Assembly: GCA_015501605.1 (NCBI GenBank)
Contig: JADNRZ010000031.1
Coordinates: 124,001-188,000 of the forward strand
DNA from: Panaeolus papilionaceus
Lineage: Eukaryota > Basidiomycota > Agaricomycetes > Agaricales
DNA length: 64,000 bases
Reading direction: 5' to 3'
In this document: positions 2,645-28,293 of the stretch, one piece after another
Numbering within the stretch: position 1 is the stretch's first letter
Layout of the letters: each line of letters starts with the position of its first letter
Position numbers and translations under genes: made by a program
The notes under the pieces: model-generated
Seen by the model: the letters and a program-made list of their open reading frames with translations, nothing else
Databases searched by the model: none
What the model was told of the DNA's origin: nothing

Positions 2645-3333
2645 CAGTCCCCCCTGAGTACCGTACGGACTCCATACGGACTCCCTAGGGACTCCCTAGG
2701 GACTCTCTGCCAAAAACACAGCATTGTCACCTAACACAACTGTGGACACTCTCAACTGCAACACCAGCATACAAGGACAGTGCAAACAAACAAAAAAACA
2801 AGGCAAAATTACCTTGTATTATGAGAAATTTGTAATATATGTGCTGGAGTCACTTGAGTCCCAAGGGACTCCCTAGGGACTCTCCGCACTCCCTATGGAC
2901 TTTTTACATATATCACCTAAATTTGATGTTTTGATAGGTTTCAGACAAATTCATATATACAGAGTCCCTACAGAGTCCCTACAGACTCTGTGCAGACTCC
3001 CTAGGGACTCCCTGGGACTCCAGCAGTAATACAAGGCGATTATGGGAAATACTGTGAGTACAATTGTCCATATATTGTAATGACTAATTATTATCTACAT
3101 CAGAGTCATCTGCATTTGCATTATCCAATTTGCCTGGAGTCCCTGTGGAGTCCCGATGGAGTCCATCAGAGTCCCTAGGGAGTCCCTACAGAGTCCGTAG
3201 GGACTCCCTAGGGACTCTGCATATGGATTTGTCTGAAACCTATCAAAACATCAAAATTAGGTAATATATGTAAAAAGTCCGTAGGGAGTCCGGAGAGTCC
3301 CTAGGGAGTCCCTATGGTACTCCAGGGGGACTG
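2645..3333. mobile_element. MITE-like element with CCCTAGGG repeats
   Basis: The element starts CAGTCCCCCCTGAGTACC and ends GGTACTCCAGGGGGACTG. These are inverted copies matching at 16 of 18 positions. Inside, an inverted pair at about 2905-2965 and 3219-3280 carries the words TCACCTAA and TTTGATAGGTTTCAGACAAAT. Many copies of the 8-bp palindrome CCCTAGGG sit in GACTCCCTAGGGACTC units. There is no coding capacity. At 689 bp with structured ends it fits a non-autonomous DNA transposon. I found no convincing target-site duplication next to the ends. Confidence 0.75.
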
Positions 3334-4100
3334 AGAAGTTCAGATGAGATGGTCAGTATGATGGTCGTAGTTGAGAAATGGTTCTTGTTTGTTGCAATGC
3401 CTTGGGGTCTGCAGGCGCGTGCCTCATGTGCGGCGATCGACGTTGCATCCTTATCTTATCATTCCATGAGTGTATGCTTTCTGTGTGCATACTCGTAATC
3501 CGGTGCAGAGAATTGGGCAGTCTGCATTCGGGATGCTGTAAATTGGATGACTAGCATGTGTGCCAAGGTTAGCAAGCACAGTATGGTAGGTGATGTTGAG
3601 GAGGAAGAAGTCATGCAAGAGTGGAGACGTTGATGAGCGCGCAATGGTGGGACGAGGAATGGAAACAAAACAAAAACAAAAAGGGATGGTGAATGGAAGT
3701 GTGAGGGTGATGGTGGTGGTGCAAGGTGAGTGAAGTGAAGGAGGTGAGAGAGGTGCGCTCGGTTGCAAGATCGTGGCATCTGGAGAGCTGTGGTCAGTAG
3801 GAGAAGGTTGCTGAGACGATCAAATTGGGTTCAGGTCGGCACCGGTGACGCTGAGGAACGAAGATACGAAGCTTGAAATGACTGAGGACAAAGAAAAGGT
3901 CGACGATGGTGACGCTAGACAACTAGGAACGATACGGACGATGACTGAGAGGAGTACCGACGACGGCGACTGAGTACAAAAGTCAACGATGGTGGCTACG
4001 TAGGATGGCTTGGAGACAAAAAAGGGCGACGAGACTTAATCAGACACGGCTGGCAACACTGGGAGAGTGGGAGAGCACGAACCAGACCGATATAAGGTAA
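3334..4100. repeat. Diverged repeat shared with about 29400-29820; no gene
   Basis: Plus-strand blocks such as GATGGTGGTGGTGCAAGGTG followed by AGTGAAGTGAAG, and later GACTGAGTAC with ATGGTGGCTACGTAGGA, recur in the same order at about 29400-29740 (ATGGTGATGGTGCCAGGTG, GGCTGAGTACG, ATGATGGCTACGTAGGAC). The two overlapping minus-strand open frames at 3451-3779 are low-complexity Ser/Pro/Thr/His reads of this repeat and are not convincing genes. The foldback element begins directly after it. Confidence 0.55.
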
Positions 4101-4394
4101 TTACAATGTAGCGACTTTGTTGGTCCGCGGACTAGCTACAACGTAATGACTGAGTGTGATCCATGGATCGCCATGGATTTCCTACATTTTGGGTAACTAC
4201 ACTAAATAGTTATTTCATTAGATAGAATATAAGTGAATTAATTATTACTAGTAGGTGGGCGGGTTGGGTAGGGTGGATTTCCGAGTGAGCGGCGGGTGAG
4301 CTGGAATGGGTGGATTGGTAGTTTTCCAAGGGAATGGGAGGGGGGTAGCGGGTAGGTTGGGGTGGGTGGGTAGTAGTGGATTGGGGTGGATTGG

Positions 4395-5345
4395 GAGATT
4401 TCCGCGGAAATGGGGGGAGGTTGGGGGGTGGTTTGGGGTGAGTTTATTGTAGTGGATTAGGTTGGAGTGGGCACATTGGGGTGGGTGGGTAGTAGTGGAA
4501 TAGGGTGGATTGGTAGATTTCCGCGGAAATGGGGGGGGGGGGGGGGGTGGTTTGGGGTGAGTTTATTGTAGTGGATTAGGTTGGATTAGATGAATTTACA
4601 AGGGAATGGGCAGGTAGGGATGGGGGGATTTTTATATTTCCGCGGAAATGGTGATCCAAAATTGCCCATTTCCGCGGAAATGGGCAAATTTAGGAATTTT
4701 TCAATGCATGGATTTTTGAATTTCCGCGGAAATGGGTGAATTTGATAAATGGATTTGTTGAATTTCCGCGGAAATGGGCAAATTTAGACATTTTAAATAC
4801 ATGGATTTTTGAATTTCCGCGGAAATGGGGGAATTTAGAGATTTTTAAATGCATGGATTTTTTGAATTTCCGCGGAAATGGGTGAATTTGGACATTTTCA
4901 ATACATGGATTTTGGATTTCCGCGGAAATGGGGAATTTTGAAAATGGTGGATTCTTGAATTTCCGCGGAAACGGGTAAATTTGGAGATTTTCAAATGCAT
5001 GGATTTGTTAATTTCCGCGGAAATGGGTGAATTTAGAGATTTTTAAATACATGGATTTTTGAATTTCCGCGGAAATGGTGATTCAATTTTGTAGATTTCC
5101 GCGGAAATGGGGAATTTGGAAATGGTGGATTCTTGAATTTCCGCGGAAATGGGTGAATTTGGAGATTTTCAAATGAGTGGATTTGTGAATTTCCGCGGAA
5201 ATGGTGGACTTGTTAATTTGTGAGCAAAGGTTCCGCGGTATCGGAAATTCATTCCAATATTGAAATGAGTCAATTGTTGAACTTCCGCGGAAATGGTGGA
5301 TTTTCTGTGGAATTGGGTGGATGCCATTCATAGATTTCCGCAGAA
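4395..5345 (+). repeat. Array of TTCCGCGGAA palindromes, left arm
   Basis: About 15 exact copies of the 12-bp palindrome TTTCCGCGGAAA, one TTCCGCGGAA and two degenerate copies (near 5231 and 5335) are spaced mostly 40-60 bp apart, wider at the outer end. Linkers vary in length and follow loose consensus words such as GGGTGAATTTGGA and CATGGATTTTTGAA. Each site is a perfect dyad with two CpGs. The shape suggests a dense array of binding sites for a dimeric factor, plausibly a transposase or chromatin protein; that role is inferred. Confidence 0.85.
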
Positions 5346-5455
5346 GAGGTGGATATTAACAAACTATAACCCAACAGTGTTGCAAACATTGTCAGCAAAT
5401 AAGCAGAAGTAATTAACTCCTGCAGGTTGGGAAATAAGTTTCCAATTAAATTCTG

Positions 5456-5790
5456 ACCCGGTACCATGTACCCGCAGGTAGTCTTTACAAAATGAATCCA
5501 AAATCATCCAAAACGAGCAACATTTGGCAGAGATACTAATATTTCAAGCATTTTCTGCTTGATTTTACACCGTTTCAGGCGCTCTTGGACCTGTTTTGAA
5601 GTCCGCGGGTACACCAGCTTTCATTCATGACCCGGTACCATGTACCCGCAGGTATTCCGCCTGAAACAAGTCCCAAATCATTCAAAACGGCTGTCATTTA
5701 GCTAAGATATCCATGTTTTGAGGATATTATGCTCAATTCTGCACCGTTTTGGGCGCTCCGGGGCTTGTTTTGAAGCCCGCGGGAACACCA
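5456..5790 (+). repeat. Tandem pair of about 165-180 bp units in the foldback arm
   Basis: The block GACCCGGTACCATGTACCCG occurs at about 5455 and again at about 5631. Each copy is followed by CAGGTA, an AAATCATYCAAAACG segment, a CACCGTTT segment and a TTTTGAAGYCCGCGGG segment ending in ACACCAG. The right arm holds the mirrored pair at about 7204-7538. A diverged third type lies at 2085-2220. Confidence 0.75.
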
Positions 5791-6186
5791 GAATACAACC
5801 GGAAACATATCAGACCATTTACTTCATCCACCCCCAGGTGGAAAAGCAATATTGATTGAGGAAAAGGCAGAAATCATCATACCTGCAGGCAACAAGGTGT
5901 ATTAAAGTATGTTTTCCCGTGGGTAGCCCACATTTCATCAAACAACACCCTATCTAACTCTGGCATAAATTAGATGTAACTCCCTCAGTTCTGCATTATT
6001 TTGAGTGATATTGGGCTTGTTATGAGCGGATTATCTATGGCTACAATATGGTATGTATATTCAGGTGTTTAGAGAATGATAGCAGTTGATCTTTGCGATA
6101 TCTCCTCTTTTACAGGTACCCCTCTCAGCCCTACATCATAGATAAGGATATTTCTGGCAATAGAGAGCATTCAAAATAATGCTGAT

Positions 6187-6808
6187 ATAACAAATTGCTG
6201 TATCTAATTGAGATATGCAAGTATTGTCAACAAAGAAGGCCCTAGTGCACTCACAAGAGCTAATGGTTAGACAACTGGATGACAGAATATAGCGAAACCA
6301 CAGTACATGTGACTCATTTATCAGGTTTATATGGGTGATATATTGGACAATGATACAACAAGAGGGGAGGATGTTCTAGAAGCAACATTTGACAGTAATA
6401 TGATTATATTTGAGACAAGATATGTTCTACATGTTATGATTCTTAGTCTCCATGCAATATTCTCTTTCCCTTTTGTTGTTTTAACAGGTGGAAGAAGAGA
6501 CTTATGCTTCTGTTTCAACTGCATCCTGTCTAACCATTGTCTCACCATTGTCTGGTGGGTGTTTTCTTTGGTACTTTTGTTGAAGAAAGTCTCAAGATAT
6601 CATTAAGAATTGCTTCTGACTCTTGTTTCCTTCTTTCTTGGTCATTAATCCGATGTATCAGTCATATAAGCTACAAAAATGGATGTAATATGGTACATTG
6701 GAACCATATCCTGTAAAATAGTTGTCCAGTCCTTGTCTGTCAGGTGTATTCTGGAACTTTGTTGTGAACGAAACATGTAGAACACAATTCAAGTCTAAAA
6801 TTTAGAAC
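6187..6808. other. Foldback loop, unique sequence
   Basis: The 622-bp loop is the only unpaired part of the element. It has a 91-codon plus-strand frame at 6331-6606 and a 73-codon minus-strand frame at 6327-6548. Neither resembles a transposase or any family I know. The plus-strand frame is rich in hydrophobic residues near its end. I call no gene. Confidence 0.5.
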
Positions 6809-8892
6809 ATCAGCATTATTTGAATGCTCTCTATTGCCAGAAATATCCTTATCTATGATGTAGGGCTGAGAGGGGTACCTGTAAAAGAGGAGATATCGCA
6901 AAGATCAACTGCTATCATTCTCTAAACACCTGAATATACATACCATATTGTAGCCATAGATAATCCGCTCATAACAAGCCCAATATCACTCAAAATAATG
7001 CAGAACTGAGGGAGTTACATCTAATTTATGCCAGAGTTAGATAGGGTGTTGTTTGATGAAATGTGGGCTACCCACGGGAAAACATACTTTAATACACCTT
7101 GTTGCCTGCAGGTATGATGATTTCTGCCTTTTCCTCAATCAATATTGCTTTTCCACCTGGGGGTGGATGAAGTAAATGGTCTGATATGTTTCCGGTTGTA
7201 TTCTGGTGTTCCCGCGGGCTTCAAAACAAGCCCCGGAGCGCCCAAAACGGTGCAGAATTGAGCATAATATCCTCAAAACATGGATATCTTAGCTAAATGA
7301 CAGCCGTTTTGAATGATTTGGGACTTGTTTCAGGCGGAATACCTGCGGGTACATGGTACCGGGTCATGAATGAAAGCTGGTGTACCCGCGGACTTCAAAA
7401 CAGGTCCAAGAGCGCCTGAAACGGTGTAAAATCAAGCAGAAAATGCTTGAAATATTAGTATCTCTGCCAAATGTTGCTCGTTTTGGATGATTTTGGATTC
7501 ATTTTGTAAAGACTACCTGCGGGTACATGGTACCGGGTCAGAATTTAATTGGAAACTTATTTCCCAACCTGCAGGAGTTAATTACTTCTGCTTATTTGCT
7601 GACAATGTTTGCAACACTGTTGGGTTATAGTTTGTTAATATCCACCTCTTCTGCGGAAATCTATGAATGGCATCCACCCAATTCCACAGAAAATCCACCA
7701 TTTCCGCGGAAGTTCAACAATTGACTCATTTCAATATTGGAATGAATTTCCGATACCGCGGAACCTTTGCTCACAAATTAACAAGTCCACCATTTCCGCG
7801 GAAATTCACAAATCCACTCATTTGAAAATCTCCAAATTCACCCATTTCCGCGGAAATTCAAGAATCCACCATTTCCAAATTCCCCATTTCCGCGGAAATC
7901 TACAAAATTGAATCACCATTTCCGCGGAAATTCAAAAATCCATGTATTTAAAAATCTCTAAATTCACCCATTTCCGCGGAAATTAACAAATCCATGCATT
8001 TGAAAATCTCCAAATTTACCCGTTTCCGCGGAAATTCAAGAATCCACCATTTTCAAAATTCCCCATTTCCGCGGAAATCCAAAATCCATGTATTGAAAAT
8101 GTCCAAATTCACCCATTTCCGCGGAAATTCAAAAAATCCATGCATTTAAAAATCTCTAAATTCCCCCATTTCCGCGGAAATTCAAAAATCCATGTATTTA
8201 AAATGTCTAAATTTGCCCATTTCCGCGGAAATTCAACAAATCCATTTATCAAATTCACCCATTTCCGCGGAAATTCAAAAATCCATGCATTGAAAAATTC
8301 CTAAATTTGCCCATTTCCGCGGAAATGGGCAATTTTGGATCACCATTTCCGCGGAAATATAAAAATCCCCCCATCCCTACCTGCCCATTCCCTTGTAAAT
8401 TCATCTAATCCAACCTAATCCACTACAATAAACTCACCCCAAACCACCCCCCCCCCCCCCCCATTTCCGCGGAAATCTACCAATCCACCCTATTCCACTA
8501 CTACCCACCCACCCCAATGTGCCCACTCCAACCTAATCCACTACAATAAACTCACCCCAAACCACCCCCCAACCTCCCCCCATTTCCGCGGAAATCTCCC
8601 AATCCACCCCAATCCACTACTACCCACCCACCCCAACCTACCCGCTACCCCCCTCCCATTCCCTTGGAAAACTACCAATCCACCCATTCCAGCTCACCCG
8701 CCGCTCACTCGGAAATCCACCCTACCCAACCCGCCCACCTACTAGTAATAATTAATTCACTTATATTCTATCTAATGAAATAACTATTTAGTGTAGTTAC
8801 CCAAAATGTAGGAAATCCATGGCGATCCATGGATCACACTCAGTCATTACGTTGTAGCTAGTCCGCGGACCAACAAAGTCGCTACATTGTAA
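6809..8892 (-). repeat. Foldback right arm
   Basis: This is the reverse complement of the left arm, position by position, apart from two homopolymer indels. Paired coordinates add to 12993 outside the G/C run, 12994 inside it, and 12995 next to the loop. The near identity implies very recent formation or continuing gene conversion between arms. Confidence 0.85.
7649..8599 (-). repeat. Array of TTCCGCGGAA palindromes, right arm
   Basis: This is the mirror image of the left-arm array, with the same sites in reverse order. Because each motif is its own reverse complement, the element as a whole carries about 32 identical palindromes that read the same on both strands. Confidence 0.85.
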
Positions 8893-9610
8893 CTTCCCTA
8901 CCTGCCAGACCACGGTTGGTGACGCTGGTAATAAGACGAAACAACAAGAGAACGGAGCTCAGATACGAAATCTGGGGAGCGCAAAGTGAGCCATTTGTAA
9001 ATGTAAGCTAGCGTACATTTAATATGTATACAAGCTACCAAGTGAGCCGACTGCAAATTGAGAAAGAGAGTTGAACTGACACGAAAAGAATGAAAAGCGA
9101 AGAGAAAACGAAAAGAGAACGCGGAAGTTAAGACATGACACAATGAAAAAAAAAAAAAACCATACTGACTCGCACAACCAACGTAGGTTAGTGGTACCTC
9201 AACATGATTTATAATGGACCCTAGCATGGAGAATCCCACAAGACGCGTTGTGAATTGGGTACACCAGTGTTTGCGGACTCCCGTCCTTGTCAATGGAATT
9301 CCCTGGCACGCCCTAAACTTGTGACCATACATACTGCACTCCTCGTCACTTGAGCACAATCCGAAATATGATATATTTTTATTAAACTACGATGATAGGC
9401 GTGAAATTGGAATGTCTATGATCAAATTCTGGAAGACGATGAATATATATGAAATGAACAACCACAATACATGATGCAATAGAAAAGGCTAGAGAGGCAT
9501 TGCGAGTGACACGAGTAAGAAAGCAAGATTGCTGAAGAAAGCACTGGGAGGGTCGAGAGGATGAGAAGCCGCGATGCGAGGAGGGGATTTCGTCAGAGAC
9601 CCCTGTGTAA
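8893..9610. other. No gene seen
   Basis: This is the spacer between the foldback element and GTPase copy 1. The minus-strand open frames at 8898-9359 and 9382-9690 show no domain. The second overlaps the GTPase 3' end out of frame. Confidence 0.4.
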
Positions 9611-10914
9611 TTAGTCCCTAGGCTTAAACCATCTTGCTCCTCGGCGCTTAGCATGGCGCACCAGTCCAGTGAGCTGATACCGAAGAACAAAGAACCGTAC
9701 GGACATGGTGAGTGGAATAATAGATGATGCCAGAAGTGATTTTATAAGGCCGTAACGGGCTTCTTCGTATTCTGGTGGTAGGTATGGGATGCTGAGAAGC
9801 TCTTGTACAAATACTGTCAACAGCTCTTCATTCTCCGTGTAGTTCTTTTCAAGGAGTGCCCCGAGTTCGTCGTTGGTTTGGGCCAGGGGATCGGCAAGTT
9901 CAGACTGGATGTCTTTCTTCCGTTGAAGAAGACCGTCAATGCGCTCATGTAAATCCTGATAGAGGGACGTCATTGCGGTGCGTATATTTGCCCGACTGTC
10001 ATTGTTCCACGGTTCCATATCCAATATTTCCAAAGCAGAGTCCCTGGTGTTGGCAAATCGAGCGATTGTTGCACCCATGTCGCTAAATTCCTAATCAAAA
10101 CGTGCAATTATCATTATCGTGAAAATGCTATAGAATTAAGAATGGAGCTAAATGCCTTGAAAATTTCATCTCTGAGCTGTTCGTAGTTTGACTCGGCACG
10201 TTGGCTCGCAGACTCGGTATGCAGTGTATCCCACCTGGTCGTGACGATAGTGAATGCTGAGCGGCCTTGGGATGGTTGAAGCATTGTCTTTAGTGTATCA
10301 ATTGTTCTGCGCTTGGTACCAGGCATCCGTGGCTGATTGATTGGGGTTATAAAAAGAATTTTATCATATATAGCAGACCCTTTTTTACTGTAAGAATCTC
10401 AGTTCGTGTTCGGTATGTACAGGAGAATGGAGAGCGTGTACCTTTTAATGGCTTCACCACTAATAAACACTCCCAAACTGGAAATCTGGGGGTCGGAAAA
10501 TCCGGGGGTATCAATCACGTAGATCGGTCTGTCTTTTTCTTCATCTTGCAAAAGAACATTAACGACTTTGTATGCGGCGGCCGTTTGCGTGACTCCAGCT
10601 AGCTGGTCTTTTGATATACCCAAGTCCTGAGAATCCCCTGCTAGCGCTTGAATGAACTTCGATGTGCAAGGTACCCGTGTACGTTAAGTACTCATAATGA
10701 TGAGGTACATGTGTATTACCGTACTTACGCAGCTTTTCCCAGCTCCTGTAGGTCCCCATAATCTACCGAAGCCAAACTCTCAAATAGTGGCGCAAGAATA
10801 TCACTCATGAGGGACTCACAGATATATAAATGCATCTCCTGGCAGTTTATCAGTCACAGGTTCGACAGATATGTCACCTATGATCTTTAAACGAGTATAC
10901 TCGTGGATGCTCAT
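9611..10914 (-). pseudogene. P-loop GTPase family, copy 1 (broken between exon-4 and exon-5 parts)
   Basis: Exon 1 is 10820-10914 (starts MSIHEYTRLK, then GDISVEPV) and exon 2 is 10729-10762, a 34-nt exon coding the Walker A loop LWGPTGAGKS. Exon 3 is 10442-10656, with FIQALAGDSQDLGISKDQ and the DTPGF switch motif. The last part runs from 10387 and has RMPGTKRRTI, the TTRWD motif and the C-terminal RGARWFKPRD. Splice phases agree as far as exon 3. The last part then has stops near 10126-10134 and a TAG directly before the EFSDM-like block, and the total length is out of frame. It is probably a recent pseudogene of a nucleotide-binding protein. The sequence gives no partner or pathway. Confidence 0.75.
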
Positions 10915-11830
10915 GATAGTCTTCTGATAAGTGGATGGTAAGTTAGCACCGAAGAATGAAATGATAAGGGAGATGGTTATTGGTGGGAAAGGGTTCTCGT
11001 CTGTGGGATCTCCAGGTGCGTGGCTCATGTGAGCCAATCTGTGGTCGCAATCTTATCTTATCATTCCATGCTATTCATAAATTTGGACTCCTATGCAGAG
11101 TCAGTAGAGCGGCTTTCTGGTTCTACATGGATTACAAAACAGATGACCAGTTTGCGAATAGCTTATTTCAATTCGAAAGATGCGTGGTCCCAGTTCTCAT
11201 ATCGCTATTTATGCATATTACATGGGAGTCATCCTCTTTGACTCGCAACCATAATGAAAGTTCGCTGCAAGTTCCTCTGTCATTGTGCCTGCAAGACTTG
11301 GTGACCTAGTTGAAAGTGAGTTTCTCACTGGCAACATTGTTGTCACCTTGCAAGTCTGCATAAATTGGACGCCCGTATTGGCTGTTGAAATATACAAAAA
11401 GCCGATGGAACATGGAACGTACAGTATAAGGGACACTACCACCTGTTGCGCTCATGCTCACGGATGTAAAGGACTAGCTGCTTGATTACCTGGCCTGTCG
11501 TACCCCCGGTGCTCTGTAAGAACACGCATATGGACGTCCCAAAGTAGTCGGTATACCCAGTAGTAAAATGTTGACATGTGAGGATTGAGATCACCAGTTG
11601 TAGATCGTATGCGCTGCAAGCGAGGCTGGGTCTGACTCAGTGAAGATAACGTCGACGACAAAACGAGATACATGACAGTGCGTAATCACTGTAGAGCTCA
11701 TTAGACAGGGATTATTCTGACCGCTCACTCTCACGTAAATGAAGTTTTATTCATCGCCGGACTCAATACCTATTCTCACAACAACATTATCCTCATCCTC
11801 TCGCTCACAATGCTTCGTAAGTCTCCTCCT
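10915..11830. other. No gene seen; GTPase 5' flank and spacer
   Basis: The first 100 bases resemble the 5' flanks of other GTPase copies (GATGGTTATTGGTGGGAAAGGG; compare about 63455-63490). The rest has only short overlapping open frames on both strands with no features. Confidence 0.35.
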
Positions 11831-11831
11831 G

Positions 11832-11990
11832 TCAGAAAACCCAGGTGTGTTGGTCAAGTAGATCGGCAAGTCTTTTTCTTGCCACTGTAATAAGGCGTTG
11901 TCCAGCTTATAAGCAGATTATTTTTGAGTGAATCCGACCAGTTGGTCCTTAGAGATCACCAAGTCCTGGTCCTGCTGAGCATGAGTGTGC
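11832..11990 (-). pseudogene. GTPase exon-3 relic
   Basis: The minus strand reads DQDLVISKDQLVGFTQK, a stop, then SAYKLDNALLQWQEKDLPIY and TNTPGF. This lines up with family exon 3 (SQDLGISKDQLAGFTQK, then the DTPGF motif) but has an internal TAA, and the switch aspartate is replaced by Asn. No Walker A exon or C-terminal exon is seen around it. It is a dead fragment of an older copy. Confidence 0.7.
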
Positions 11991-12905
11991 CTCAGCCTGG
12001 AGCGCATGCCGCATGGGAGGTGATTGATGTTCACAGCCTGACCACACGAAGACCCGTCATTTTTCGAGATGACACGATACAAGTATGATTAGGTCGCGTC
12101 CAGATCATGTCCTCATCTCAGAACCTGCCTGCCCTTATCGTTTTTTATTTAGCGTAATGTTGCCATGCTATCAAGGTCTTGACAAGGTAGGTATTGAACA
12201 CCTTCCCTGAGACAGGATATGCAGGGCATGGGTGTTTATTCAAGTACAATACTATCGGCAACCATGCTTCGAACGCGGAAATAAATCGAACCTCATCATG
12301 ATGATCTTCGACAAGTGGTTGAATGGGGTTGGGACAGATGCAACAGTGTTTGTCAGTGTTTGACACCAATGTTGAGACAACATGTATCCAGCCCTGCTTA
12401 GTTCAGACCACCATCATTCACAGCCATACAGCGACGAGCGTCGCTCCTCATTTTCCTCCTTCTCATCGCCACATTTGTATTTGAAATGATACCTTGAGGT
12501 GATCTCATGTCTTCTGGACACACAGGAAGCTGAGCGCTTCCACATCAGGCGTGTAGAGGTTCATCAAGGCAGAGCAATTTACGCGACGCGTTAGCATATG
12601 TTCAAGTGAGTGTCTGATTCTGTTCTTTTTTTCTTCTTTTTCGGGCTCTCATCTAATCGCTTTTCAGGTGTAACTATATAGACCATTATAATACTTTGCG
12701 CCTGTTTATTGCTACAGTCGTGATGTCCACCATTAAACACATCATCGACCGCTGCGGTGAGATCAAGGATGACGAAAGGGGGAAAGGAGAAAGAATGATT
12801 GTCTGAAACGTAAGATGGTCAGGAAGTCTCAGAGGGGAGCTGTGAGGAAATTCGAGAACGAGCGCATGTGATGAACCGGCCACGATACAGAAGTTCTACA
12901 AACAG
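11991..12905. other. No gene seen
   Basis: Only short open frames occur here, for example minus 12145-12369, which has a cysteine-rich start but no family I recognise. The last 200 bases resemble the 3' flank of other GTPase copies (GGAAAGGAGAAAGAATG with TGTCTGAAACGTAAGAT; compare about 60721-60765). Confidence 0.35.
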
Positions 12906-14186
12906 TTATACTTTTGGCTTAAACCAGTTGCTTCCACGGCGCTTAGCATTGCGGACCAAGTGAGTGAGTTGATACCGAAGAACGTAGGTCCGCTTGGACA
13001 TGGTGAGTGGAATATATGTTCCTAGTAAGGATTTGAGAAGGTGATAATGGGCGTCTTCAAATCCCGCAACCGGGAAATCGGGGCCGACAAACTCTTCGAC
13101 AAACTTCTTCAACGCTTCTTCGTTCTCTCTGTGGTTCTTGGTGAGGACAGCCCTGAGCTCGAGGTTGGTTTGAGCTTGGGGATGAGCGAGTTCGGAAGCA
13201 ATGATTTCCTTTTGTTGTAGAGCGTTCTCGATACGCTCATGCAAGTCGCTGTAGAGGAATGCCGTGCCTGCGACCGGATTTGAAAAACCATTGTTCATCC
13301 AGGAGCCTGTGTCCAATATTCCGAGCGCAGATTCTCGGGTATTGGTGAAACGAACAGTAGATGCATTCATGTCGCTGAATTCCTTTTCAAAATTTGTCAG
13401 TCGCATGAGGCGGGATAATAAAATGGAGATCCATGCCTTGAAAATGTCGTCTCTGGGCTGTGCATAGTTTGCCTCGGCACGGTGGTACGCATGCTTGGTA
13501 TACAAAGTATTCCACATAGTGGTTATGATAGTGAATGGGAATTTGTGCTTGGACGGCTCGTACGCTGCTGTAAACATTTCGATTGTCCTGCGCTTTGTAC
13601 CAGGCATGCGTGTGTCGGTGATTGGAGTCAGAAACAGTATTATGCGGTAAATGGGTTTCCTAAAACAATATTGGTTTAAAAATGATCCAATGTGTACATA
13701 AGCATATAGAGAAATACTTGGATACCCTTATGCAGGTTAGCCACGGCTCTGAGGACTCTGTTATGAGATATGTTGGGGTCAGAAAATCCCGGGGTGTCAA
13801 CGAGAAAAACTGGATGGTCTTTCCCTTTATCTTGGAACAAAACGTTAACGATCCTATGCGCCGAGACCTTTCGCGTGAATCCGGCTAGCTGGTCCTTTGA
13901 TATACCCAAGTCCTGAGAATCCCCGGCCAGCGCTTGAATAAACTGTCATATATATGTGAGTTATCACTAGCAGTCATTTTACAGTACATATTTCTGTACA
14001 TACACAGCTTTTTCCCGCACCTGTCGGTCCCCATAATCTACCAAGTGGTGAGCTTTAGCCAGTCCAAGTACGTCATCAACCAGAGACCCACTCATATACC
14101 AATACATCCTCTGGAAGTTCCTCTGTCATCGGTTCGACAGATATGTCACCCTTAATCTTAAGGTTGGTGTACTCAGCAGCGTCCAT
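12906..14186 (-). CDS. P-loop GTPase family, copy 2 (nearly intact)
   Basis: Exons: 14092-14186 (MDAAEYTNLKIKGDISVEP), 14004-14037 (Walker A, LWGPTGAGKSC), exon 3 from 13942 (FIQALAGDSQDLGISKDQ, then the switch DTPGF), and 12906-13659. The last exon is one open frame through MPGTKRRTIEM, TTMWNTL, EFSDM, DLHERIENALQQKE and the basic C-terminus RRGSNWFKPKV. If exon 3 ends where the paralogs end it (13743), the total is 361 codons in frame, but that position reads GG instead of a GT donor. So this copy may be mis-spliced. The product should be a cytosolic nucleotide-binding protein of the AIG1/septin-like G-domain type. The guanine-specificity motif NKxD is not evident; TTMWN occupies the equivalent place. 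Confidence 0.75.
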
Positions 14187-17100
14187 GGAGACCTTTGGTG
14201 CGATGGGCGTTAATATGATACTGTGATACGAGACAAAGGGACAGAATGATAGTTGTAAGGGAAAGGAAGTTGTGCTTTGCTGCGATTCATGAGTTAGGAG
14301 ACACGTGGTAATGGTGACTCGACATCTTATCAGACACTGGTATTACATTTCTTATTGAGACGAGCTGTCACCGGTTGACGTGTCACCCACCACGCGGGCG
14401 AAGAGTAATTTTTTGAACGTCATACTGGTGCGAAGTCCATGATAGCGCGCAACTGTCGGGGCAGATGTTCGTCGCACGATGATGCAGAGAGGATCATAGT
14501 GTAGCGATTACACTGTTCCCCTACCCTTCAAACTTATTTACTTTCCTTTGTCATTATCTTCCCCATCGCCAGCTTCGCCACTTATCTCACATTCGTTAAT
14601 CGGACTACCCTAGGATTCCGTAGACTATATACAACCTCGTACATATCGTTATGTACACAACAAGTTCTACTGAAATACGAGAGGTCTAAGCAGTCATCTC
14701 ACGATCTGAACTTACACATCCCTATCCCTTGTGGCATAACCGAGGTCCAAGACTTCGCTTGTGTTACTCATAGGCTCTCGTTGAACCACTTTCTTTTTTC
14801 TCTCTCTTTGTTCTGGACATAATTTTGACATTAAATGGTATTTTAAGGCATGTAAAAACACACCCTTCATGTCAGACAGCACAACTGGATAGGAATTGGG
14901 TTCAAAATACAAGGGCGACCAACGGAAGGTGTCCTTTCATTCCCCAACTGACACTCGACTTTGATTTCTTATATCCAGTGACTCTCCTCCATATACGCTA
15001 TGACTTAAAATGAGCTGGCTATGACGGGATGGCGACTTGCGTGGCGTGTTATAGTATCTTCAAATGAGTGTCTGATTCTACTTTCGTCTGTTGCATTTGC
15101 GTGTCAAGAAAATTGTGAATCAAACCATCTGACGGGAACGACCATGCATGAGTTATGAAGATGGGTGGTATATGCGGGGAAATCGACACTCGAAATCTTA
15201 TCACATACTCATCATGATCGCAGACAACCCACTGTGCAGACGCGCGTGCCCGCTGTCACCCACTGTGCGCTCTGCTTGGTAATAACTTTGTTTCCGACTT
15301 CATTTCGTGGACTTCTGGGCTGCCAGGGACATGGGAGGCGATATGCGGAGTACCCAAGTTCATTGGAGTACTAATTATTCGATAAAGATTTTTGGACGTT
15401 ACATTAGTTCGGAACGCATGATTGTGAACAGTTGTGTTTCGTCAAATGTACTAGTTTGTCTCAAGAATGTTTGTCGGTGTTTGAGTCCAAAGTGAAACTA
15501 AAATGATCCGTCTCAGGCGACTTGACCCCAAACCACCATCATCGACACCACCAGAACTGCTTTCTGAGGCGCTTTTGGTTTGGGAAGTGCGTACGTGTTG
15601 GGGTTGATGAGGGGACTTGGACCTAGGCGACAACGTCGTGACCTAGGAGAAGGTTTGGAGTATGTAGAAGTAAGTGCCAACCTTTGCTCCTGTTCCTTAC
15701 AATGCAGGTACCAATTAATGTTCTTTTGCAGTGTATATAGATAGAGGAATATACCTCCTTTATGCTCAGCGTTTCTTCGTCCTCATTTCTTCGTCATCAT
15801 CGTCGCAATTCTGCACATTCCGTCTTGCCCCTGGGATCATCAAATGGCATCAAGCTCCTGCTCTCGGAATTTCCCTTCTGAAATACGTCCCACAGCGCTA
15901 CAAAAGCGGCCATCCTTAACTGACTGTTCTAAAGCTCGCTTTTGCTTCTGGAGTGCATGAGGGAAGCGTCTGTGCGGCGAATGCTGCGTTAATTTTCTGT
16001 TTTTCTTGTTTGAGGAGCCGGATGCTGTTTATTTTGGTGTCGTACCTGGACATGCACTAGGCACGGCGGGAACTCGTTATCTAAAGCAATATCAAGCACA
16101 ACCAAACGACGGATATGATTTCACCTATCCTTCTGCACGTACATCTCTAACATACCCCCCTATAGATGCCCGAGGTCGCAATACCTTCACTAGAGTCACG
16201 ATCCCTTCGATTTGTTTCATTTATGCGAGCCACTGATGACTTCGCGAAACGCAGACAGTTCACCACCTCTCATTACAACAACACCGGAAATTTCAACCAA
16301 TCACAGTTCCAACACTCACCCCAGAACACCTTGGTTCGTTGCTGAGTGTATCTCACCACACCCATCGCAATCATCACCTCAGGGATGACCAACTGTTATC
16401 CAGTACCGCTTGCACCTAGCTCTGTGGACCGTCGCCTTGACCATTTCTGCGAAAATTACCTGCAAATCCGAATACAGATTGACACGTCATCAAAGTGAAC
16501 CTCCACCACCCACTCATTCACCTTTACCTCTCCTCATGCGACAACAATACTCCTCACTCCCAATTGTAAAGCAGGGCTGACATCCTAAGGTTGTCCTCCA
16601 GGCCTCCCTACCCTTCAGCTATTTTTTATCGCTCAGAAATGGTCGTTGTTGGCGAGAGGTGGTTGGGTTAGTATGCCCTTTGTAGGGTTAGGGTTTGTGT
16701 GTGTGTGTGTGTGGGGGGGGGGGGGGGTCTGAGTGGATGTGACGATAAATGTTAGTGGTTAGGTTGAGACGATGGATGCGATGGTGGTTGATGCGAAATG
16801 AGCAACACGATAGGGGTGAAATGATCACAATCATGGCATTTGCGTCTCGTCAATTCCATTTCGGTCTTTGGCTTCAAATTGCTATTTATCCAACTCATTG
16901 GAGCTGGATTGTGCGTATCTCGCCCCTGAAAACCAACATCTTGAGCTTTTCTTCAGGTCATTCTGGTGACTCAGGAGGACTGAGGTAAGATAGAATTTCG
17001 GATCGCGACTGGTTAAGGGGAGCTGGATGCAGAGCAAACATGATGGGGGTATATCGACTTCAATGACGTGGGTGTTGAAGGTAAGAGGGGCGGGATAATG

Positions 17101-18041
17101 GGTAATGGATGGGTGGTGTTCAGGGTGTGCAACGATGTATGGGTGGAGCATAGGCTGTCGGGGACGTGAACAGCAGTGATGATCATCGATCAGCATTCAT
17201 CGATCATCACTTGACGTCTTTAAGCTGTACATCCCAAATTTTGCTTTACTGGTAACATCGCGACTCTTTCTGTCGCTTTCATTCTCCCATAAATTCTAAA
17301 AACGCGACTACCTGACTGATTCGCCCACTCTCTGCTGGTCACGCACGAATTCTTCCCGTCTTAGGATCCATCATCACATTATGTTGACTCTAGTTCCATC
17401 AACCAACATCGTCCGGCATTGTCTTCGACCTCCCAATGACGACCACTTTTTCAACCCTCATCTTAGATTGAGCAGCTAGTTTGACGTGACATGAAGTTAC
17501 AGTAACCACATCTGCGTTTATTCCAATGTCAGCACACCCCCTGGCGATTTCTCCTGTCGGAGATGACCATGCCTCCACGTTCATGTTCCAATGGAGCGAC
17601 TGCATCCCCTGTGGGTAGTCTTCAACTTTTCAAATATCTAGTACTCGTCCCCAAATTTTTCGTCCGTGTCAGAAATAGTAGGGTCAATGAATCTACTTTG
17701 AAGTTCTATGGAAGGGGTGGGCAAAATATCCGTGACGAACTGTTTTTGCATCACACCGCATAAAAGGGCTCCTGGCATTTACATCTTATGATCTGCTTGG
17801 TGGCCTTCGATGCACTTTCGATATTTACTGTCAGCAAGGAAGCTTTGCAGTTTGCGCTCAGGCTGTTGAAACGCCTCGCCCGGGGCAGCTATGTTTACTA
17901 CTTCCACACCCAGGTGTGGTTCTGCGTGCTCCATGAGTGGTGCGTCACCTGTATTTTGCGCTCTGTTATCAGAATTTATTTGATAAGTACAGGATATGTT
18001 TTCATCGTATGGGCAATATGATACAGGAGACCTACTTATAG
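14187..18041. repeat. Repeat-filled duplicon; no gene
   Basis: The region is a patchwork of sequence shared with about 37.0-40.5 kb. For example, CACCTCTCATTACAACAAC is followed by CCGGAAAT and CACAGTTCCAACACTCA at both 16260 and 38630. TGTTTGTCGGTGTTTGAGT followed by CAAACCACCATCATC recurs at about 15465, 21280, 37600 and 63890. GTPase 5'-flank-like sequence lies near 15130-15200 and 3'-flank-like sequence near 17900-18040. Short open frames such as plus 16006-16236 show no domain. Confidence 0.5.
16691..16727. repeat. (GT)n/(G)n simple repeat
   Basis: A run of alternating GT followed directly by about 15 G. The matching place in the other duplicon copy (about 39055-39066) has only a G run, so the tract length has changed since the duplication. 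Confidence 0.9.
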
Positions 18042-18322
18042 TCACAATGAAGCCTTTAGCTTGAACCATTTACTTCCATGGTGCTTAGCGTTGCGAACCA
18101 ATCGAGTGAGTCGATACTGAAGAACATAGGACCCCACGGACGTGGTGAGTGGGATATATGTTCCCAGTAAGGATTTGAGAAGGTAATAATGGGCGTCATT
18201 AAATCCTGCTGGCGGAAAATATGGGCCATTAACAAACTCTTTGACAAATTTCTTCAAGATTTTTTCATTCTCTCTGTGGTTTTCTTTTTTTTTTGAGAAT
18301 TGCCCTGAGCTCGAGGTTCGCC
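18042..18322 (-). pseudogene. P-loop GTPase family, copy 3 (C-terminal fragment)
   Basis: The minus strand codes for the last part of family exon 5: KKFVKEFVNGPYFPPAGFND, then LLKSLLGTYIPLT, YRLTRLVRNAKHHGSKWFK and a short tail. Homology stops at about 18322, where an A-rich run in the coding sense is joined to the 3'-flank type of sequence (TGCTTCATGAGCGGTGCTTC) normally found downstream of a GTPase copy. It is a truncated remnant, probably left by a deletion or unequal exchange between tandem copies 3 and 4. Confidence 0.75.
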
Positions 18323-18663
18323 CAAGACGGTATGTTCATATTTGCTTCAACTCGTTTTCATCCCACTTCTACGCCCAGTGTTGGTTGTACGTGCTTCATG
18401 AGCGGTGCTTCACCCGTGTTTTCTCTTAATTGTCAGATATTTGACTGCTAAATACAGGATGTATTTTATGTTGTATGTACGGGATGATAGAATCCATATG
18501 ACAGTGTACTTAGACAAGACTGTACGGGGGATGACAGAAGAGAGAAGGGGGAAAGTGTAAACCTCCGAAATGCAAGAACGGAAAGGCTCGGAGGGAACTG
18601 TGACTCGGAGGGGAATGAGTGGCTGTGATGGACCACAACGATACAGAAGACCTACAGACATGA
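18323..18663. repeat. GTPase 3' flank repeat
   Basis: This block (CATGAGCGGTGCTTCACC, then TACAGGATGTATTTTATG, then AGAAGAGAGAAGGGGGAAAG) recurs downstream of copy 7 (about 60490-60860) and downstream of the split copy (about 40190-40560). A partial copy with no gene attached lies at about 33200-33540. It marks the 3' boundary of the duplicated GTPase unit. Confidence 0.65.
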
Positions 18664-19949
18664 TTAAGTGTTTGGCTTGATCCATTTACTTGCACAGCGC
18701 TTAGCATTGCGGACCAATCGAATGAGGTGATACCGAAGAACGAAGATTCGTACGGACGTGGTGAGGGGAACATATCTTCCTGGTAAGGATTTAATGAGAT
18801 GATAATGGGCGTCCTCATACCCAGCAGGAGGAGACCCGCCGGCGAGAAACTCTTTGACAAACTTCTTCAACCTTTCTTCGTTCTCTCTGTGGTTCTTTTT
18901 GAGGATATCCCTGAGCTCGAGGTTGGTTTGAGCTTGGGGATGAAAAAGCTCCGATGTGATGACCTCCTTTTGTTGTAGCGCGCTTTCGATACGCTCATGC
19001 AAGTCGCGGTAGATGAATGCCTCGCCTGCAACCGAATTTTGATACGAGTCGTTCTTCCAAGGTCCTGTATCCAATATTTTGAGGGCGGATTCCCGGGTAT
19101 TGGTGAATCGAACAGTTGTTGCACCCATGTCGCTAAATTCCTAGTCGAAATTTATGAGTCGTTTTTGAGGCGGGATATTAAAATGGAGAGCCATGCTTTG
19201 AAAATGTCATCTCTGATCTGGGCGTAGTGGTCCTCGGCGCGGTGGTGCGCATTCTCCGTACACAAAGTATTCCACATAGTGGTTACGATACTGAGTGCTA
19301 AGCTGTACTTGGATGGTTCGAACGTTGCTGTGAGCATTTCGATTGTCCTGCGCCTTGTACCAGGCATGCGGGTGTCGGTGATTGGAGTCAGAAACAGCAG
19401 TTTTACGTGAGTTGCTTCACTACAACAATATTAGTTCAAAAATAAATCCAATTTGTACAGAAGCATGTCGATAAATACGTGTTTATCTCCCTACGGAGGT
19501 TATACCTGGCCGCGAGGACTCCGAGATGAGATATTTTGGGGTCAGAAAACCCCGGGGTATCTAAGAGGAATATCGGATGATGTTTTCCTCCGTCTTGGAA
19601 AAAAACGTTAACGATTCTGTACGCCGAGGCCGTTTGGGTGAAACCAGCTAGCTGGTCCTTTGATATGCCCAAGTCCTGAGAATCCCCGGCCAGCGCTTGA
19701 ATAAACTGTTGTATACATGTGAGTTACCGGTAGCAGCCATTTTCAAGTACATATTCCTGTACGTACTGAGCTTTTTCCTGCGCCCGTCGGTCCCAATAAT
19801 CTACCGAGTAGTGAGCTTCAATCAGTCCAAGTACGTCATTAACGAGTGACCCACGTATATACAAACGCGCCGGCTGGCAATTTCTGGGTCACAGGTTCGA
19901 CAGAAATGCCACCCGTAATCTTGAGATGGGTGTATTGAGGAGAGTCCAT
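18664..19949 (-). pseudogene. P-loop GTPase family, copy 4 (frameshift and stop)
   Basis: Exon 1 is 19855-19949 (MDSPQYTHLKITGGISVEPV), exon 2 is 19767-19800 (LLGPTGAGKSS) and exon 3 is 19506-19705 (FIQALAGDSQDLGISKDQ to DTPGF). The last exon starts at 19419 (EATHVKLLFLTPITDTRMPG). Splice phases agree for all of these. Near 19140-19180 there is a net +2 change against copy 2 (CCTCAAAAACGACTC for CCTCATGCGACTG), and a TAG stands where copy 7 has CAG. The rest (18664-19128) is open and ends ASKWIKPNT. So only the middle of the last exon is broken and the gene was lost recently. Confidence 0.75.
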
Positions 19950-20163
19950 CAGGATATTTGGTGTGGTGAGCCGTGATATGATGCCGCGAGATGAGACGAC
20001 GGGAGAGACTGGTGGTTGTGAGGGGAAAGAAGTTGTGCTCTGCTGCGATTCACGAGTTAGGAGACGTATGATTCCAATGGCTTATATGCTATAACTCATC
20101 CGACAGAATTAGGGTCCTTAACTCGCATCAGTATCAGAGAATGGAAGCATCGATATCTGCACC

Positions 20164-20400
20164 TCATGCATACATATCATAATCCAATTTAACACCATTT
20201 TTGGTGGTAGTCATGTGAGTGATATCAACTTGGTCAAAATAACTACGGGTTTCGTCGTCATCCATCAATACCAGGTATTGCGCTTTGTCGGCATTTCTCT
20301 CGGTGATACTCATGTTGGAGCCAATGATTTGCAGCCCTGTGTAGTACATGCCCGTTGATGCGTTCTCTACTTCTCCACCGTGGGAACGTCAAGACCAGCC
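20164..20400 (-). other. Conserved small coding-like block upstream of GTPase copy 4
   Basis: The minus strand codes STGMYYTGLQIIGSNMSITE, continuing through QYLVLMDDDET, FDQVDITHMTT and GVKLDYDMYA. A close paralog lies at the same distance upstream of GTPase copy 7 (62285-62590). The changes between the two are mostly amino-acid substitutions plus one in-frame indel, which suggests real coding sequence, perhaps an exon of a neighbouring gene on the same strand. I do not recognise the family. It may also just be part of the duplicated segment. Confidence 0.45.
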
Positions 20401-22251
20401 AAGTTGGCGTAATTTTAGTTTATCATATCCATATCTCCTATCCATCAAGGAGTGGCGAGGCGTGATTGTACAACTCTAAATTTGTTTCGACAGCACCCTG
20501 GATGTCTCTGCACCCCACCATACCAGAAGCGTCCAGTGTATTAGACAGACCTATCAAACCCATCTACAATTCATAGCATAGCCAATTATCTTATCTCCAC
20601 ATTGAGACCGGACCGCGACTGATGCTTTGATACCTCGAGGCGAGTGTGGCGCATCTCTGCGTTGCCTTTTATGGCGAGCAATGCTGCACTGGCCAGTGGC
20701 ACCCACACGACGCGACTGTTGAAGCTCCAAGCCCTTCGAGTCAATGCTTCTGTCTTACTTTGAATACTTACTCTAAGCTGCAATGTATATGTGAGGGGCA
20801 GGAGGAGTTCAAAACAAGTGGCAGTGGTATTCTCGCGGACCTTTCAAAGCGAAATTCCATGTTTAATGTTGTTAGTGGGATTGACACGGAAAGCCGAGAT
20901 GATGGGACAGGCTGGTAGTTATGAGGGGAAGGAAGTTCTGCTCTGTGGCGATGTATGAGTTATGGTGACGGGTGGTATATGTGAGGTAATCGACATTCAA
21001 AATTTTACCACAGACTAATACTAAACATTGTGCAGATGAGCGTACCCACTGTCATCCACCCGCACGCAGGCTGCGTTTTTAAGTCATACCTTCGTTTCTG
21101 ACTTCACCATTTCGCTGCTGTGGGATGCAATATGCGGAGTGCTGAAGTTTATTCATGTACACATTATTCGACGAAAGATTATTTGGATGTTACATGAATT
21201 CGAAATGCATGTTTGTAGACAGTTGTGTTAGTTGTGGTAGAGAAGTTGGCTTGAAGCTGATGATGCGATATCAGGAGGATATTTGTTGGTGTTTGAGTTC
21301 GAATTTGAATCAAGGCCATCGGTCCAACTCGACTGAATCTCAAACCACCATCATCGTGCGTTAATTAAGGGGCTGGAATCTAGGCGATGATGTCATGACT
21401 TTTGAAGAAGGGCGGGTTCCAATTAATGTTCTTTTACAGTACGTAGAGGTAGATGAATATAACTCCTTTATATGCCGCTTTCTTTGACCACTTTTGCTGG
21501 TCATCATCGTCGCAATTCGCAAGACTCCATCCTGCCTCCGGGTTCATCGAATGACACCAACACACTCCTTCTCCTGAAAATTTCCTTCTGAAATATGTAC
21601 ATTCCACATCGCTACAAATGCAGTCATCCTTACCTGACTGTTTTATGCCCCGCTTTTTGCTTCCGGTGTGCATGAGGGACTCGTATATACGGCGAATGCT
21701 GATGGGATGAGGAACGAGAAGGTAAGGTTGATCTAACGGCGATGTCGCTGTGCTGGTACCGAGGGTAAGTGGTACAGGATGGGTAAAGGAGGGGTGGTGT
21801 TGAGGGAAGGCCAGAATGCATGGTGGAGCATAGGCTGTCGGGGATGGGAATGGCGGTGAGCCTCAGCGTTGACAACATAATTACTCGTTACAGTAACACC
21901 GCTCATCTAGCTATCATACTCCCATAATTTCTAAACACGCGACTGTCTGCAGTTCCGTCGCCGTATATGCCGCCTCTAGCTTCATTGCCTCACATTGTCA
22001 GGAATCATCGTTGTACCCCAACTGACAGCCGTTTCTTCAATAATCCACTGGCTACTCCAACCCGACGTGAAGCCATAGCGGCCATAGCTCCTCCACCAGC
22101 GCCAATCCCCACTTTTTTAAATTGAATACCTCGTTCACTTTAGTTTCAATGAAAGCTCCCATCAGTACCCCCGTTCGAGTAGACCGTGTTACCTGCACAT
22201 AGTGTTGACCTGTTCGTGGATCTGAAACTCGTCCTCGCAATTCCCTGTCTA
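20401..22251. other. Repeat patchwork; no gene
   Basis: 20690-20920 matches 37070-37275 (CCAAGYCCTTCGAGTC, then TCAAAGCRAAATTCCATGTTTA). 20920-21010 resembles GTPase 5' flanks. 21270-21360 carries the recurring GATRTTTGTTGGTGTTTGAG block. These are solo pieces of the duplicated GTPase units. No open frame here has recognisable features. Confidence 0.4.
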
Positions 22252-23020: not shown

Positions 23021-23025
23021 AAAAG
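23021..23025. repeat. Copia target-site duplication, left (AAAAG)
   Basis: AAAAG directly precedes the 5' LTR and also directly follows the 3' LTR at 28634-28638. Five bases is the usual length for Ty1/Copia integrases. Confidence 0.85.
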
Positions 23026-23365
23026 TGTTAGAATATTTTTCTATCGTCTACTAGTTCCCGAGTCGTCTCTATTCTTGTCTCCTTATTGTTCCTTCTATCT
23101 TTACTTGTAACCAGGAACTTCTTCATACCCACATTATGCATCATCCCTTATACCAAAGTATTGGTATCGTTTCACCTATATTTACCTAACTACTCTACAT
23201 GTATATAAGCAGTCGAGTAGCACCTCAATTCCATAGTGTTTCTCTCTTTTCTTTACCTCTGCTTAAGGACTCAACACTCAGTCCTTTCTTCTTTATCGTT
23301 AACCAAAGTTCCTCTCCACAGTTGCGACTGTTGGAGTTCACTATCGCCTTAGCCTTATTCTTTTA
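23026..23365 (+). repeat. Copia 5' LTR
   Basis: This 340-bp LTR carries a TATA-like TATATAAG at 23202-23209, the likely promoter of the genomic RNA. It differs from the 3' LTR at two positions, where it has T and A and the 3' copy has C and G. The long terminus begins TGTTAGAA. Confidence 0.95.
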
Positions 23366-23381
23366 GGTTATGGGCCCCGAC
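23366..23381 (+). promoter_or_regulatory. Primer-binding site, initiator-Met half-tRNA type
   Basis: GGTTATGGGCCCCGAC directly follows the 5' LTR. It is complementary to the anticodon stem-loop region of initiator Met-tRNA (GGGCCCAUAACC in many eukaryotes), not to the 3' CCA end. Drosophila copia primes in the same way from a cut tRNA fragment. The tRNA of this organism is not in the window, so the match to its own tRNA is inferred. Confidence 0.75.
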
Positions 23382-23427
23382 GTCCGCTCATAGGAACCCC
23401 GTATTGCTGCTCGCACTTTGCTAGTGC

Positions 23428-28182: not shown

Positions 28183-28284
28183 ATGAATTTTCTATTATCG
28201 CTTATTTTATCTCGTCTCTCGTCTATGCTTTCTTTCTTTATTTTTCTATTTTGCAAACACGTCGTTTACTACACTTCCATGTTT

Positions 28285-28293
28285 GAAGGGGAG
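28285..28293 (+). promoter_or_regulatory. Copia polypurine tract
   Basis: GAAGGGGAG lies directly before the 3' LTR start TGTTAGAA. That is the expected place and composition for plus-strand DNA priming in LTR retrotransposons. Confidence 0.9.

What the first reader, a model, noticed from the sequence alone, without database searches (positions are those of the whole stretch)
4101..8892. Giant 4.8-kb near-perfect palindrome (foldback element)
Arms of about 2.09 kb differ, where I compared them, only by two homopolymer indels. A palindrome of this size is normally unstable, so it must be very young, continually corrected, or protected. It is the strongest structural feature of the window and contains no recognised gene.
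Basis: partly seen in the sequence, partly recalled or inferred. Interest (0 to 1): 0.75.

Follow-up and report, generated by a model that had tools for sequence, protein, structure and literature searches.

The report
Giant palindromic KDZ-linked foldback transposon
The 4.8-kb DNA palindrome is a gene-less jumping element of a mushroom genome that appears to be moved by the transposase of larger, related elements, and its two mirror-image halves seem to be kept alike by recombining with each other.

Summary
The palindrome is real. It is one of 23 two-ended copies recognised in the genome of a mushroom, identified here as Panaeolus papilionaceus. The full element is window 4089-8904: two 2.09-kb arms round a 0.62-kb spacer, plus a 12-bp cap at each end that is NOT inverted (GATATAAGGTAA / CTTCCCTACCTG), flanked by a 7-bp target duplication (CCAGACC). 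Fourteen of 23 copies have exact 7-bp duplications, and uninterrupted (empty) sites exist for several. It has no recognisable gene. The same caps, outer ~160-190 bp (82-87% alike) and 7-bp duplication occur on large elements that carry a KDZ (Kyakuja-Dileera-Zisupton) transposase, such as a 34.8-kb element on contig C8. Best reading: a non-autonomous foldback element mobilised in trans by a KDZ transposase. In 19 of 21 copies the two arms differ by 0-6 substitutions, while lineages differ by about 0.5% to over 5%, so arms evolve in concert. The spacer is inverted relative to the caps in 4 of 14 copies, as arm-to-arm recombination would produce. Foldback elements are a known kind; a KDZ-linked one with unlike caps and flipping interior I did not find in print. 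New variant of a known kind, moderately interesting.

The parts
4082..4088 (.). Target-site duplication CCAGACC, left copy
4089..4100 (+). G cap GATATAAGGTAA, outermost 12 bp, not part of the palindrome; present at one end of each of the 23 paired copies (first base A instead of G in C25:345494)
4089..4272 (+). Cap plus subterminal stretch shared with the ends of KDZ-carrying elements (82-87% over 158-189 bp)
4101..6186 (+). Left arm of the palindrome
4398..5202 (+). Array of 14 exact ATTTCCGCGGAAAT sites in tandem-repeat units, left arm
6187..6808 (+). Spacer (loop); inverted relative to the caps in 4 of 14 spacer-bearing copies
6809..8892 (-). Right arm of the palindrome
7792..8595 (-). Array of 14 exact ATTTCCGCGGAAAT sites, right arm
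8893..8904 (-). C cap CTTCCCTACCTG (CAGGTAGGGAAG read inward), not part of the palindrome
8905..8911 (.). Target-site duplication CCAGACC, right copy

Best explanation
A non-autonomous DNA transposon of foldback shape, mobilised in trans by a KDZ-superfamily transposase made by larger relatives with the same ends. Shown: dispersed insertion with a 7-bp target duplication, empty sites, lack of coding capacity, ends shared with KDZ-carrying elements that have the same duplication length, concerted evolution of the two arms, and inversion of the interior relative to the caps. Inferred: the transposase recognises the two unlike caps plus the shared ~160-190 bp and moves the element (cut-and-paste is assumed); the long arms beyond that stretch are passenger DNA that changes length by gain and loss of tandem units and is kept identical by arm-to-arm gene conversion or crossing over; a crossover within the arms flips the spacer.
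For: 23 two-ended copies, each with one G and one C cap, 14 with exact 7-bp duplications; 18 exact 7-mer matches among 31 G and 42 C ends against about 0.26 expected. Empty sites: 113 of 113 bases for L054, 112 of 113 for L043, 98% for L050. C8:613001-647794 has both caps, TCCACAA on both sides, 1062-bp inverted repeats at 97%, and CxC2 and KDZ domains. Second KDZ element split over contigs C35 and C2 with GAGTGTG on both sides. Ten of 13 variant C-cap ends have a KDZ match within 25 kb on the inner side and none on the outer side; 22 foldback copies: 3 and 1. Arms: 0-6 substitutions in 19 of 21 copies; both arms sister in 7 of 19 copies on a tree. Spacer flipped in 4 of 14 copies, breakpoints inside the arms.
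Against: No transposition was observed and no transposase shown to act. The KDZ gene of C8 is interrupted, and C8 also holds retroelements and a weak Harbinger-type match. The interior of the C35/C2 element was not read. Similarity between palindrome and KDZ elements ends after about 190 bp. C27 and C37 pairs of caps round KDZ matches have unmatched flanks. Five of 23 copies have no duplication. The arms of L050 differ by 14-34 substitutions depending on alignment, and those of L044 by different deletions.
Confidence: 0.82

Rival explanations
1. Assembly or library artefact: one arm was duplicated in inverted orientation by the assembler.
For: Three contigs begin or end inside such an element (C2, C32, C42), so the assembler does have trouble there; C50 and C57 carry each other's target duplications, which could be an assembly switch.
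Against: Twenty-three copies at separate sites have both ends, 14 with exact and different 7-bp duplications, and empty sites show the insertion to be real. Arms of the lineages differ from one another while matching within a copy.
Confidence: 0.03
2. A foldback element of another superfamily (Mutator, hAT7 or P/Galileo) whose ends resemble those of KDZ elements by chance or by capture.
For: Most foldback elements are assigned to Mutator (PMC4079207, passages); 7-bp duplications are also made by hAT7 (PMC12730594, passages) and Galileo (PMC4168063, passages).
Against: Caps and about 160-190 bp match KDZ-carrying elements that make the same 7-bp duplication. Other transposase families were, however, not searched for in this genome.
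Confidence: 0.1
3. The arms are alike because each lineage's palindrome was made anew by copying one arm (fold-back synthesis during gap repair or transposition), not because existing arms are corrected.
For: L048 has 154 bp of spacer doubled in inverted orientation, so palindromes can extend inward; arm lengths range from 0.15 to 2.1 kb.
Against: Fresh copying alone would not invert the spacer relative to the caps in 4 of 14 copies, among them L052, whose arms differ by one substitution from unflipped L043. The two processes are not exclusive.
Confidence: 0.3

Closest known systems
Tm1, Mutator/foldback family of root-knot nematodes (PMC3169594, passages seen)
   Same: Long composite inverted repeats with internal tandem repeats; asymmetric 7-bp motifs outside the inverted repeats, usually one kind at each end; coding and non-coding members; one element with the same motif at both ends lacks a target duplication, like the C23 element here.
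   Different: Mutator-type transposase, 9-bp duplication, other sequences; the two repeats of one element are on average 93% identical, against over 99% in most copies here; no spacer flip reported in the passages seen.
KDZ transposons of fungi: Kyakuja of Laccaria (PMC12730594, passages); KDZ1-KDZ3 of Cryptococcus (PMC12810828, passages)
   Same: KDZ transposase domain in the partner elements; Kyakuja makes 7-bp duplications; one end here begins with CA.
   Different: Kyakuja is described with 5'-CA..TG-3' termini and no TIRs; KDZ1 has 241-bp TIRs and 8-bp duplications. Here the outermost 12 bp are unlike and kilobase inverted repeats start behind them. The palindrome itself has no transposase.
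Galileo (P superfamily; PMC4168063, passages) and Tetris (PMC4079207, passages), foldback elements of Drosophila
   Same: Very long inverted repeats that grow by internal tandem repeats; many non-coding copies; 7-bp duplications in Galileo; recombination between copies.
   Different: Galileo belongs to another transposase superfamily, and no transposase was found for Tetris; no asymmetric caps mentioned in the passages seen.

Membership tests
Foldback transposable elements (structural class) | Long, often internally repetitive inverted repeats making up most of the element | tested here: met
   Arms 2 x 2.09 kb of 4.8 kb, tandem units inside
Foldback transposable elements (structural class) | Mobility shown by target duplication and empty sites | tested here: met
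   14 of 23 exact duplications; empty sites
KDZ superfamily (as a non-autonomous relative) | Ends shared with elements coding for a KDZ transposase | tested here: met
   Caps plus 158-189 bp at 82-87%; KDZ and CxC2 in C8; KDZ on C35
KDZ superfamily (as a non-autonomous relative) | Same target-duplication length as the KDZ partner | tested here: met
   7 bp for the palindromes, for C8 (TCCACAA) and for C35/C2 (GAGTGTG)
KDZ superfamily (as a non-autonomous relative) | Moved by a KDZ transposase | not testable with these tools
   Needs a transposition assay
Kyakuja (group within KDZ) | 7-bp target duplication | tested here: met
   definition from PMC12730594, passages
Kyakuja (group within KDZ) | 5'-CA..TG-3' termini and no TIRs | tested here: not met
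   Ends are 5'-GA..TG-3' (5'-CA..TC-3' on the other strand), with inverted repeats behind the caps
Kyakuja (group within KDZ) | Transposase falls in the Kyakuja clade | not tested
   No labelled reference sequences were at hand
Mutator/foldback (Tm1 type) | 9-bp (8-10 bp) target duplication | tested here: not met
   7 bp
Mutator/foldback (Tm1 type) | Mutator-type transposase on elements with the same ends | not tested
   No Mutator family was searched in this genome
P superfamily (Galileo type) | P-type transposase on elements with the same ends | not tested
   No such family was searched in this genome

The most novel reading that the evidence does not exclude
This KDZ transposase needs two different ends: each two-ended copy recognised, and the two coding elements with matching duplications, carries one G cap and one C cap, although everything between them is free to invert. 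The caps would act as a polarity tag outside an invertible palindrome, so arm recombination flips the interior without loss of mobility, while crossovers that give two like caps (the C23 element, without a target duplication) yield immobile elements.
Probability: 0.42. Interest if true: 0.62.

Novelty: new variant of a known kind. Interest (0 to 1): 0.47.

Why it matters
Giant palindromes are usually treated as unstable accidents. Here a natural family offers 23 copies of several lineages, with flip isomers, apparent recombinants and empty sites, in which correction of arms, growth of arms and loss of mobility can be followed. It also indicates that KDZ elements can give rise to non-autonomous foldback derivatives, and it makes a clear prediction about a need for two unlike ends.

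Tried and rejected
Intron-like reading of the caps (CAG|GTAGG resembles a splice donor): dropped by eye because the other end does not finish in AG; not tested with transcripts.

ATTTCCGCGGAAAT as a site required for movement: disfavoured, because it is absent (up to 2 mismatches) from the six loci that cover the C8 element, and the 577-bp copy has only one. It occurs 429 times in the genome against 0 for the reversed control; 380 of these lie in the 21 copies.

C51:27980-40329 as an autonomous candidate: it is a foldback copy with a Ty3-type retroelement inside. C23:2157612-2173321 has a KDZ match inside but two like caps and unmatched flanks. C27 (156694-174488) and C37 (112394-135732) pair a G and a C cap round a KDZ match, but their flanks do not match as 7-mers, so they are not counted as intact.

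A first reading that one arm of L044 carries a converted patch from another lineage (multiple alignment) was withdrawn: pairwise, each L044 arm matches the window's arms without substitution and differs by deletions of repeat units, 178 bp in one arm and 146 and 41 bp in the other. The place of L044 in the tree is probably affected by the same misalignment.

tRNA and Rfam scans of the window gave nothing. Paper searches for foldback or palindromic KDZ elements, for foldback elements in general and for Panaeolus transposable elements showed no description of this; the listings were of open-licence papers only, and I opened four foldback or KDZ papers by passages plus one on Cryptococcus. The 2014 paper that named KDZ and the Zisupton paper are recalled, not seen.

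Rows dropped: one search used 84 KDZ places merged by hand from the 134 matches, and as foldback controls 22 of the 30 exact C-cap hits (left out: C2, C8, C23 twice, C30:16740, C32, C42, C51). One search compares arms of 21 of 23 copies; the C3:653341 copy was added, C51 was not aligned. For L040, L048 and L050 BLAST self-alignment gave 82-86% with many gaps, against 95-100% by MAFFT with few larger gaps. L053 and L055 have arms of only 241 and 151 bp.

Full report
WHAT IS THERE. The palindrome was confirmed. From the outside in, the element is a 7-bp duplication CCAGACC (4082-4088), a 12-bp cap GATATAAGGTAA (4089-4100, 'G cap'), an arm (4101-6186), a spacer (6187-6808), the inverted arm (6809-8892), a different 12-bp cap CTTCCCTACCTG (8893-8904, 'C cap') and the duplication again (8905-8911). 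The arms have no substitution and two single-base length differences. The longest ATG frame inside is 91 aa.

HOST. The genome has 50.85 Mb in 71 contigs. A protein search with a KDZ fragment returned Panaeolus papilionaceus proteins on contigs of 1215768, 199325, 340823 and 2656743 bases, the lengths of C8, C35, C27 and C23. The host is therefore taken to be that mushroom.

A MOBILE FAMILY. The terminal 15-mer occurs 60 times with up to one mismatch, against 3 for the reversed control pattern. Twenty-three copies with both ends were recognised: the window copy, 20 fetched, one on C3, and one on C51 interrupted by a Ty3-type retroelement. The uninterrupted ones are 577 to 4817 bp long. Each has one G cap and one C cap. 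Flanks: 14 of 23 have exact 7-bp duplications; C27:200780 has 6 of 7; C14:382787 has none in register (6 of 7 if shifted by two bases, by eye); C50 and C57 carry each other's duplications; C4, C14:528163, C31, C37:110913 and C38 have none. Joined flanks of 12 copies were searched in the genome (40 of 101 candidates scored). Uninterrupted sites exist for L054 (113 of 113 bases), L043 (112 of 113) and L050 (98%); less complete or more diverged matches across the joint appear for L040, L042, L047 and L053. The L054 and L043 empty sites hold one copy of the 7-mer, which is direct evidence of insertion.

THE PARTNER. KDZ (PF18758) gave 134 matches in this genome and 0 in 14 control genomes. C8:613001-647794 starts with the G cap and ends with the C cap, has TCCACAA on both sides and inverted repeats of 1062 bp at 97%, and holds CxC2 (PF18803) and KDZ pieces. 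Its KDZ gene is split by a 3.66-kb insertion, and a Ty1-type and a Ty3-type retroelement and a sub-threshold Harbinger-type match (PF13359, 21.5 bits against a cut-off of 24.8) also lie in it. A second partner lies on C35: G cap at 10717, KDZ match at 3694, and a protein (P0002) whose KDZ stretch is 93% identical to that of C8 over 128 aa and whose CxC2-containing stretch is 78% over 160 aa. Its C cap is at the very start of contig C2, with the same duplication GAGTGTG, so the element seems to span a gap in the assembly; its interior was not read. Among 13 other ends related to the C cap (1-3 mismatches), 10 have a KDZ match within 25 kb on the inner side (two of them share one KDZ) and none on the outer side; for 22 foldback copies the numbers are 3 and 1. 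The palindrome resembles KDZ-element ends over the outer 158-189 bp at 82-87%, and one further end on C8 (765672), without a KDZ match in 25 kb, over 223 bp at 93%; more distant variant ends match more weakly or not at all. The 14-mer repeat and the spacer are the palindrome family's own, apart from one 86-bp spacer match on C27.

ARMS EVOLVE TOGETHER. Outside the caps, within-copy substitutions number 0-6 in 19 of 21 copies. Examples against the nearest other lineage: L042 0 of 1999 against 27; L045 0 of 1745 against 25-28; L054 1 of 1675 against 9 (its twin L056 apart); L046 6 of 1828 against 17. Pairwise alignment with other gap costs gives the same picture (0 against 25, 0 against 28, 1 against 10, 5 against 17). 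L049 has 3 of 1018 against 11-35 depending on alignment. In a tree of 38 arms (first 950 bases, 19 copies) the two arms of L041, L042, L045, L046, L048, L049 and L051 are each other's closest relatives; the remaining copies are too similar or unresolved. In the window's group (W, L039, L057, L058) there is no substitution within or between copies, and in L043, L047 and L052 copies are as close to each other as their arms are, so these groups do not bear on the question. Against: L050 arms differ by 34 or 14 substitutions with large gaps; L044 arms have no substitution against the window's but carry different deletions; L040 and L048 arms differ by a unit of 110-119 bp. Length changes are thus not always shared.

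THE INTERIOR FLIPS. With the G cap placed left, the spacer has the window's orientation in W, L039, L043, L044, L046, L047, L048 (which also has a 154-bp inverted piece), L057, L058 and C51, and the opposite one in L042, L045, L052 and the C3:653341 copy: 4 of 14. L052 and L043 arms differ by one substitution; at column 25 L052 keeps the cap-linked base, and from column 1985 inward it is inverted, so the breakpoints lie within the arms. In the two partner elements with matching duplications the KDZ gene points toward the C cap (C8) or the G cap (C35). A 15.7-kb stretch on C23 has a C cap at both ends, arms 99% alike over 1.12 kb and unmatched flanks, as a crossover between unlike arms of two copies would give. 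The swapped duplications of C50 and C57 could be exchange between copies or an assembly switch.

MECHANISM. Best reading: a KDZ transposase acts in trans on the caps and the shared terminal stretch; the rest of the arms is tolerated passenger DNA that changes by gain and loss of tandem units and inward extension and is homogenised by arm-to-arm recombination. Shown: insertion, shared ends, concerted arms, flips. Inferred: which enzyme moves it, cut-and-paste, and conversion rather than re-synthesis as the homogenising process.

COMPARISON. Foldback elements are a known kind. Nearest in architecture is Tm1 of root-knot nematodes (PMC3169594, passages): Mutator-type, 9-bp duplication, asymmetric 7-bp motifs outside the inverted repeats, and one element with the same motif at both ends and no duplication. 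Within KDZ, Kyakuja of Laccaria makes 7-bp duplications but is described with CA..TG termini and no TIRs (PMC12730594, passages), so membership in Kyakuja is not claimed. Cryptococcus KDZ1 has 241-bp TIRs and 8-bp duplications (PMC12810828, passages). Searches for foldback or palindromic KDZ elements found none described (open-licence library only).

Noticed in passing
L062:4675-8338 (C8:638675-642338): A second, unrelated foldback element: 1.36-kb arms at 97.5%, 8-bp duplication CAATACTC, inserted in the KDZ gene of the C8 element. A search with one arm gave 55 matches (40 of 212 candidates scored).
   Followed up: partly
window 45169-51274: Split direct repeats: 169 bp at 45169 and 50884 (100%), 130 bp at 50756 and 51145 (100%), round frames one of which has a sub-threshold tyrosine-recombinase match (PF00589, 22.4 bits against 27.1). 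From recall this layout suggests a DIRS/Ngaro-type retroelement.
   Followed up: partly
window 23024-28591: Ty1/copia-type LTR retrotransposon: 1465-aa frame, flanking direct repeats of 300 bp or more at 99%.
   Followed up: partly
window 9600-20000 and 15400-22000 with 37000-40000: Dispersed direct repeats of 60-300 bp at 60-90% identity that look like paralogous gene copies.
   Followed up: no
window 34594-35331 (-): 246-aa frame with a lectin/laminin-G-like domain (PF13385).
   Followed up: no
window 2864-3313: Small inverted repeat (93-bp arms, 95%) with 11-bp tandem units nearby, just upstream of the element.
   Followed up: no
C24:387378, C61:16043, C10:954035, C23:2142824: Sub-threshold TET/JBP matches about 4 kb from KDZ matches; the KDZ of C24 is only 26-28% identical over 144 aa to the group with the caps described here, so this looks like another KDZ group.
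   Followed up: partly
C2 start, C32 start, C42 end: Three contigs end inside an element with these ends, so the family seems to break the assembly.
   Followed up: no
L017 and L018 (C8 inverted repeats): By eye, many differences between the two repeats are C-to-T or G-to-A at CG sites, suggesting methylation-linked decay.
   Followed up: no
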